This document shows positions 3,223 through 20,834 of a stretch of 64,000 nucleotides of DNA, in pieces. The notes beneath the pieces are model-generated. The model worked only from the letters and a program-made list of their open reading frames with translations, was not told where the DNA came from and did no database searches. The DNA is taken from assembly GCA_945861245.1 (NCBI GenBank), contig CAMAUE010000007.1, positions 1 to 64,000 on the forward strand, in the 5' to 3' direction. Every line of letters starts with the position of its first letter. Positions within the stretch are counted from its first letter, which is position 1. Both the position numbers and the translations under genes were made by a program. The stretch comes from Singulisphaera sp. GP187 (GTDB lineage Bacteria; Planctomycetota; Planctomycetia; Gemmatales; Gemmataceae).

Positions 3223-3851
3223 ATAATCCCTCTCGCGCGGAGTATAGCTTAGCGAATCGCACAGCAAACTTGAATCGCTTTTACTTGCTTTCGCAAATTA
3301 CCCAGCCTGGCAAGCCTAGCGCAGTGGGCATGATCGGGAAAATCGGCCCACTCCAGCGGTAACCAGAGAGAGGACCGGGACGCGACTTGGTTTCTAGAAA
3401 TTTTACCACGGATAACGCGACGCGGGCAAGCCGCAACAAATACAGTATCACGAAAACCCGAAAGTACGAAATCACGAAAGATACTTTTTTAAGTTCCTCT
3501 TTCGTGTTTTCGTTCTTTCGTGATTCGTATTGGTATGGGCTCGGCCGCGCTGTCTATCCGTGGTTGTATTCGGCTCTCTGAAAACCGTGTCGAATCCGTA
3601 AATCGCGAAATTACAAAAAGTCGCGAAAATGCTCTTGCAATATTTGAAAATACCGTTTAAGGTAAGTAATTGTTGGGTTTGTGCAGAACGGTTAATGGAA
3701 GAGATCACCGCGTCGGTATCCCCATTTTTTGTTTCGTCTCCTGCTAATCCCGTTTTTAACTTAAGCGACGTCTTTTCATGCGACCGAGTCAGCCTATGTC
3801 GGGTTCCGTCCGTGTTGCGTGAGTTATTTCCCTAGGAGGCCATCCGTGGCT

Positions 3852-5762: not shown

Positions 5763-5948
5763 CTAAAGAGCTGGCTCCGGCTGCTGCAACAGCTGGCTCG
5801 GCGATGGTGGGCGGGTCACTACTTTGCGTCCACCAGCCGCCTGCCGTTCTCTGGTATCCTGGATTATCGCTCGCAGGTCATAGTTGAAGCGTTTCGCCAA
5901 CTCATCGCGAGCCTGTCGCACTTCGGTGATGATGCTATCTAAGGCCAT
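5763..5948 (-). CDS. Small protein (61 aa) directly downstream of the PIN gene, probable antitoxin-like partner
   Basis: MALDSIITEVRQARDELAKRFNYDLRAIIQDTRERQ...; begins 4 bp after the restored PIN stop at 5952. Confidence 0.6.
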   Translation of the reverse strand: MALDSIITEVRQARDELAKRFNYDLRAIIQDTRERQAAGGRKVVTRPPSPSQLLQQPEPAL

Positions 5949-5951
5949 CAG

Positions 5952-6535
5952 TCACTCCTTCAGCAATTCTCCGGGTGTGCAAATCACGGGCGGTTCATAG
6001 CCATTCTCTCGACAGATCGCTTCAATGCTGACGCCGCCGCCGACAAAAGTACGAGCCGGAAGCGTAAGCGACGGATTTCTCCAGTCCGTCGCTTACGCTT
6101 CCGGCTCGTAAAGCGACTTTTGTCGGTGGCGTCAATGCTGGGGCGAAGTGCGGCATTGGCGATGTGGGCGCAATTCCAGGTCAGGAGAAAATCCATACCG
6201 TGGATCGTAGCGATCGCTATGTGCAGCGCGTCAGTCGCAGCCTTGGGCGGCAGCGGAACACGTTTCAGCAACTCGTCGGCGAGAGCGTGAACCTTATCGC
6301 CAGGATCGAGAAGCGGCATATTCTCCAAAATCTCCAACCGGCGTCGAGCGGCATCGGGATCGCCAGCGCCGGCCTCATCAATGACGAATTGCGAAACGAA
6401 CAACTCGAAATCCTCGCGCCGTGTATCCCACCATTCTCTCGCCGTCTGCTGGTGGCCGGCCATGACGAGATCGCGGCTAACCCATGCGGTCAAGTAACTC
6501 GGAATCGTCGTCTCAAGATACACACGCAGTTTCAT
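5952..6535 (-). pseudogene. PIN-domain (VapC-like) toxin gene interrupted near its 3' end by a MITE-like element
   Basis: MKLRVYLETTIPSYL...ATDALHIAIATIHGMDFLLTWNCAHIANAALRPSI; ORF track end is 5984 through the element. Excising 6031..6131 plus one 9-bp repeat restores ...RPSIEAICRENGYEPPVICTPGELLKE* ending at 5952. Confidence 0.88.
6031..6131. mobile_element. MITE-like element, about 101 bp, flanked by 9-bp direct repeat TCAATGCTG (6022-6030 and 6132-6140)
   Basis: Outer arms ACGCCgCCgCCGACAAAAGT / ACTTTTGTCGGTGGCG; inner stem GAGCCGGAAGCGTAAGCGACGG. Confidence 0.85.
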
Positions 6536-6590: not shown

Positions 6591-6702
6591 TGACGCGCCC
6601 ATCAAAAGTCGATTTTCCGTCGGAGGCTGAAGCGTAAGCGAGGCATTCAGGCCGCCTCGCTTACGCTTCAGCCTCGGAAATCGACTTTTGAGGGTGGCGT
6701 CA
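6591..6702. mobile_element. MITE-like element, second copy (different inner stem)
   Basis: TGACGCGCCCATCAAAAGTCGATTTTCCG...CGACTTTTGAGGGTGGCGTCA; inner stem GAGGCTGAAGCGTAAGCGAGGC. Confidence 0.82.
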
Positions 6703-20312: not shown

Positions 20313-20570
20313 GGCTTTACGCGGTTCCGTATCGAAGAGATGGGGTGACTCCGCAAACCACGTTATCGGCATTCGGATAGGCAAAGCTTGAGCGATACTT
20401 CGTACGGGTCGATCTGATATTATTCCTGGCTACGTGGAGTGGAGCTCTCGCGGTTGGATTCGATTTTCCGTCAACCGTGTCCTGCTGACGCCAATCGATA
20501 ATCTTTGCCGACTCTCCTGGCATGGTTCACTCCTGAACCACCGACGAGCAAACCGACGACAATCAAGGAT

Positions 20571-20680
20571 GATGCGCCCATCAAAAGTCGATTTTCCGTC
20601 GGAGGCTGAAGCGTAAGCCAGGCATTCAGGCCGCCTCGCTTACGCTTCAGCCTCGGAAATCGACTTTTGAGGGTGGCGTC
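20571..20680. mobile_element. MITE-like element, third copy, flanked by 7-bp direct repeat AGGATGA (20566-20572 and 20682-20688)
   Basis: GATGCGCCCATCAAAAGTCGATTTTCCG...CGACTTTTGAGGGTGGCGTC; one internal difference from the 6591 copy seen by eye (gcgagg versus gccagg). Confidence 0.85.
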
Positions 20681-20834
20681 TAGGATGAACTCAAAGACAT
20701 GAACCCGCGCATATTCACGAACCTCCTCGATGAGATTGCGTTCCCAAGCATGAGGCTGGGAACGAGGGAAAATCGACGATCGAAATACACCGTTGCTTAC
20801 GCTTTCGGCTCCGACGTTTTGTCGGCATGAAGTT

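What the first reader, a model, noticed from the sequence alone, without database searches (positions are those of the whole stretch)
5952..6535. MITE-like hairpin inserted in a PIN toxin gene, with 9-bp direct repeat and restorable reading frame
Seen: TCAATGCTG occurs at 6022-6030 and 6132-6140, bracketing a 101-bp inverted-repeat element (outer arms ACGCC..CCGACAAAAGT/ACTTTTGTCGG..GGCGT). Removing the element and one repeat (110 bp, not a multiple of 3) changes the C-terminus from the Arg-rich SRFTSRKRKRRTGEIRRLRFRLV... to RPSIEAICRENGYEPPVICTPGELLKE*. Knowledge: that ending resembles VapC-like PIN proteins (HIANA.. [RK]xI..ICRxxGYEPPVICTPEEL). Inference: a non-autonomous element transposed into the toxin gene and replaced its tail. 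The restored stop lies 4 bp before the ATG of the 61-aa partner gene.
Basis: partly seen in the sequence, partly recalled or inferred. Interest (0 to 1): 0.8.

Follow-up and report, generated by a model that had tools for sequence, protein, structure and literature searches.

The report
Mobile hairpin inside a toxin-like gene

Summary
The finding is real. A non-autonomous palindromic transposable element (MITE) lies at 6029-6134 inside the 3' end of a PIN/VapC-like gene in a Gemmataceae genome. It belongs to a 103/112-bp family (termini TGACGC...GCGTCA; roughly 190 terminal matches genome-wide, about 90 elements). The element boundaries and repeat length need correction. The target duplication is 4 bp (ATGC): 41 of 74 independent copies have a perfect 4-bp repeat, against 0-3 for any other length.

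The displaced 3' end, read in one frame only, matches 54 of 73 homologues; all 73 keep the I-x-T-P terminal motif and none carries the Arg-rich tail. A 97%-identical sister genome carries the same insertion, so it is not recent. Since then 8 silent and 4 replacement changes have accrued, two of the latter at near-invariant positions. The catalytic residues remain, but the last strand and helix are gone. I think it most likely that toxin activity is lost or impaired.

No empty site and no autonomous transposase were found. It is a new member of a known kind.

The parts
6029..6134 (.). palindromic MITE, family A, 106 bp (TGACGCC...GGCGTCA)
   Evidence: near-identical copies elsewhere in the genome
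6029..6050 (+). left terminal inverted repeat TGACGCCGCCGCCGACAAAAGT (with an extra GCC)
6116..6134 (-). right terminal inverted repeat (ACTTTTGTCGGTGGCGTCA on +)
6050..6110 (.). inner perfect hairpin, 26-bp arms, 9-base loop
6025..6028 (.). target duplication ATGC, left copy
6135..6138 (.). target duplication ATGC, right copy
5984..6535 (-). PIN/VapC-like gene as it now reads, 183 aa with non-native Arg-rich C-terminus
   Evidence: (PF01850, 25.5 bits against cut-off 23.6)
6135..6535 (-). native part of the PIN gene (active-site residues E8, E54, D102, N121 retained)
5952..6029 (-). displaced native 3' end (SIEAICRENGYEPPVICTPGELLKE*), now out of frame
5763..5948 (-). 61-aa partner gene, candidate antitoxin; homologue directly downstream of 67 of 70 PIN relatives
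6591..6702 (.). 112-bp sister element (family B), 56 bp upstream of the same PIN gene

Best explanation
A non-autonomous DNA transposon (MITE) was moved in trans by an unidentified transposase that cuts with a 4-bp stagger. It inserted at TCA|ATGC|TGG near the end of a PIN-domain (VapC-like) gene. Each insertion adds the element plus 4 bp (107 bp ancestrally, 110 bp here), which is never a multiple of three. Translation therefore runs through the hairpin, leaves it out of frame and stops at 5984. The protein keeps residues 1 to about 132 with the PIN active site, loses the last strand and helix (26 native residues), and gains an Arg-rich tail encoded by the transposon. The stop also moves from 3 to 35 bases upstream of the partner gene, which loosens translational coupling. 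Shown: element, family, 4-bp duplication, frame consequence, shared insertion in a sister genome. Inferred: that the toxin is impaired or inactive and that the insertion was tolerated because of that.
For: Copies genome-wide (94 + 97 TIR matches against 10 + 3 in the control). Of 74 non-redundant copies, 41 have a perfect 4-bp repeat, against 0-3 for any other length. The displaced 3' end matches 54 of 73 homologues at E<1e-3 in exactly one of six frames, 0 in the other five. All 73 full-length homologues have the I-x-T-P terminal motif and only L060 shares the Arg-rich tail. The same insertion and duplication occur in the sister genome. Models: intact homologue folds to its end (pLDDT 95, last strand and helix at 146-160), while the window protein drops below 50 from residue 146. 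After insertion, replacements at T32 (T in 32 of 33 relatives) and H124 (H in 33 of 33).
Against: No empty site at this locus was found; the nearest uninterrupted relatives are only about 66% identical over the native part. No autonomous copy or transposase with these ends was found. Overall 8 silent to 4 replacement changes after insertion (P 0.002-0.007) argue that the protein was constrained for at least part of the time, which sits uneasily with simple inactivation.
Confidence: 0.9

Rival explanations
1. The insertion created a working chimeric protein: the PIN nuclease with a basic, transposon-encoded tail is expressed and selected (for example for RNA or DNA binding).
For: Reading frame open through the whole element in two genomes; the length difference between them inside the element is exactly 3 bp, keeping the frame; 8 silent to 4 replacement changes in the native part (P 0.002-0.007).
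Against: Two of the four replacements hit near-invariant residues; the tail is predicted unstructured; the tail has no coding-like codon usage (score -11.8 against +21.6); three of six frames of the 103-bp copy examined are open by chance. One 3-bp indel is weak evidence, since it lies in a GCC run.
Confidence: 0.12
2. The hairpin is a REP/CGTC-type palindrome or RNA-level element (terminator, processing site) moved by a Y1 (RAYT) transposase rather than a DDE-moved MITE.
For: GACG/CGTC near the ends; very stable hairpin; five Y1_Tnp genes in the genome; most copies lie outside genes (64 of 74).
Against: A clear 4-bp target duplication is foreign to Y1 transposition (general knowledge); none of the Y1 loci has these repeats nearby; 103-112 bp is far larger than the 20-40 bp REPs with 8-9 bp stems of PMC3733652.
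Confidence: 0.06
3. Assembly artefact: repeat copies joined wrongly by the assembler.
For: Both genomes are short-contig assemblies, and repeats end several contigs (e.g. L006, L009).
Against: Same insertion, same duplication and same flanks over 5 kb in two genomes about 97% identical.
Confidence: 0.02

Closest known systems
Prokaryotic MITEs (review PMC10969869)
   Same: Short, non-coding, terminal inverted repeats, target duplications, many copies, no transposase; intragenic copies make altered or truncated products.
   Different: Here 4-bp duplication, TGACGC ends and a palindromic target resembling the element's own ends; no parent insertion sequence identified; review text holds no mention of planctomycetes.
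Rickettsia palindromic elements (RPE)
   Same: Hairpin element inserted in a protein gene and translated.
   Different: RPEs make in-frame fusions of about 150 bp; this family's standard copies always shift the frame (103 + 4 or 112 + 4 bp added; 106 + 4 here), so an insertion can only replace a C-terminus.
CGTC/GTAG REPs (PMC3733652)
   Same: High-copy palindromes, mostly outside genes; REPs reported in Planctomycetes.
   Different: Longer, with terminal inverted repeats and target duplication; REPs are 20-40 bp.
VapC PIN toxins (PDB 5wz4, 3zvk and others)
   Same: PIN fold, small partner gene adjacent.
   Different: Toxin gene precedes the partner; partner matches no Pfam or NCBIfam family; first catalytic Asp is mostly Glu; last strand lost in this copy.

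Membership tests
MITE | terminal inverted repeats | tested here: met
MITE | target-site duplication of fixed length | tested here: met
   4 bp, 41 of 74 perfect
MITE | multiple near-identical copies, no coding capacity for a transposase | tested here: met
MITE | related autonomous element with same ends | tested here: not met
   not required for the label; none found in a 95%-complete genome
MITE | empty site at this locus | tested here: inconclusive
   sister genome is occupied; no closer relative held; sampling of other loci gave no clean empty site
CGTC REP | 20-40 bp, 8-9 bp stem, one-ended tag, no duplication | tested here: not met
   PMC3733652
PIN/VapC toxin | PIN domain | tested here: met
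   PF01850 26.3 bits against cut-off 23.6; Foldseek matches to VapC toxins
PIN/VapC toxin | complete PIN sheet including C-terminal strand | tested here: not met
   last strand and helix of the intact homologue are absent
PIN/VapC toxin | cognate antitoxin adjacent | tested here: inconclusive
   conserved small partner downstream of 67 of 70 relatives, but no known antitoxin family matched
PIN/VapC toxin | toxicity neutralised by partner | not testable with these tools
   needs expression in a laboratory strain

The most novel reading that the evidence does not exclude
The transposon-encoded basic tail has been domesticated: a frame-shifting hairpin transposon turned a VapC-like toxin into a new nuclease that has been maintained in two lineages, moved there by an undescribed transposase whose palindromic target (GCNTCA-WNNW-TGANGC) copies its own ends.
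Probability: 0.1. Interest if true: 0.6.

Novelty: new member of a known kind. Interest (0 to 1): 0.33.

Why it matters
It documents a planctomycete MITE family, not described in the papers searched here, with a precise 4-bp target duplication and a strongly palindromic target that resembles its own termini. It also gives a clean case of a mobile hairpin rewriting a toxin's C-terminus. The wider PIN family with its unclassified small partner looks like a widespread toxin-antitoxin pair whose partner has no family model in the libraries searched here.

Tried and rejected
A 9-bp or 8-bp target duplication: rejected by the 74-copy statistic, in which several sites break the 8-bp match but keep 4 bp. 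IS3-type parent: suggested by the TGA...TCA ends and 4-bp repeat, but no rve domain in the genome. IS200/RAYT parent: five Y1 genes, none next to the repeats. DDE_Tnp_1 and ISAzo13 genes: their flanks show no paired ends of this family. Solitary ends as edges of a larger autonomous element: all inspected ones are decayed or partial copies. Empty sites from about 1.7 Mb of two genomes: 92 kb aligned, three length differences, none a clean empty site. Two other apparently intragenic copies (L008, L017) look like start-codon over-extension and an antisense frame. Rfam and PADLOC: no match.

Full report
The window lies in a 6.04-Mb, 289-contig genome (G000).

It is a mobile element. A search of its own genome found about 40 near-identical copies and a related 112-bp family, one copy of which sits 56 bp upstream of the same gene. 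The terminal motif occurs 94 + 97 times against 10 + 3 for the backward control, hence roughly 90 elements. From all fetched stretches 74 non-redundant bounded copies were collected, mostly 103 or 112 bp. Of these, 41 have a perfect 4-bp direct repeat just outside TGACGC/GCGTCA, and no other length reaches more than 3. The target is palindromic, roughly GCNTCA-WNNW-TGANGC. The same preference may explain elements lying next to each other separated by only a 4- or 5-bp spacer (for example L028, L169, L238). One copy in another species of the genus (L156) shows the same anatomy, with AGCT on both sides. Elsewhere in the family mostly the central stem is shared, as a plain hairpin.

The host gene is a PIN protein: PF01850 above its cut-off, and a model matching VapC toxins. 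The 3' piece in one frame matches 54 of 73 full-length homologues at E<1e-3 (best 1e-13) and none in the other five frames. All 73 keep an I/V/L-x-T/S-P-like terminal motif, and the Arg-rich tail occurs only in the sister genome, which has the same element.

Consequence. The element plus 4 bp adds 107 bp (110 bp here because of an extra GCC; the sister has 107), not a multiple of three, so the standard copies of this family cannot make in-frame inserts as Rickettsia palindromic elements do (PMC10969869). The active-site residues E8, E54, D102 and N121 are kept (their role is from general knowledge of PIN domains). An intact homologue ends in a strand and helix (146-148, 150-160; pLDDT 95); in the window protein everything after residue 145 is below pLDDT 50. 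The stop-to-start distance to the partner gene goes from 3 to 35 bases.

History. Because both genomes share the insertion, the simplest reading is that all differences between them post-date it, unless the insertion later spread by recombination. In the native 131 codons there are 8 silent and 4 replacement differences, fewer replacements than neutral expectation (P 0.002-0.007). Yet two of the four fall on residues that are T in 32 of 33 and H in 33 of 33 relatives: the window carries A32, and the sister carries R124. The partner gene has also diverged beyond codon 45 between the two. I read this as decay that followed a period of constraint, with loss or impairment of toxin activity the likelier outcome; domestication of the tail is not excluded.

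Limits. No empty site was found at this or other loci in about 1.7 Mb sampled from the two genomes, and no autonomous transposase. Only 10 of 74 copies overlap a coding-like frame, and this is the only convincing case of a gene body interrupted.

It is an instructive but ordinary kind of event, in a MITE family I found no description of among the papers searched.

Noticed in passing
window 5763-5948 and 67 of 70 homologous loci (e.g. L061-L139): Small partner protein (about 55-80 aa, D-x-I-V-x-E-V-R...F-N-Y-D-L) directly downstream of this PIN family across many phyla, without a significant match among the members scanned (window copy: Pfam, NCBIfam and PADLOC; three homologues: Pfam); probably an unclassified antitoxin family.
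   Followed up: partly
window 6591-6702 and 20570-20681: Two 112-bp elements of the sister family (TSD AGGA perfect at the second); the first lies 56 bp upstream of the interrupted gene.
   Followed up: partly
window about 5808-5813 against L060 about 3724-3748: Partner gene's 3' end differs between the two sister genomes (about 24 bp), changing its C-terminus after codon 45.
   Followed up: no
L157-L165 (other genomes of the genus and family): The central stem GAGCCGGAAGCGTAAGCGACGG recurs as a plain hairpin without terminal repeats in related genomes; its own mode of spread is unknown.
   Followed up: no
L059 against L177; L197 against L236: Sister genomes differ by rearrangements whose edges lie at these repeats (apparent chimeric element in L059), suggesting recombination between copies.
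   Followed up: no
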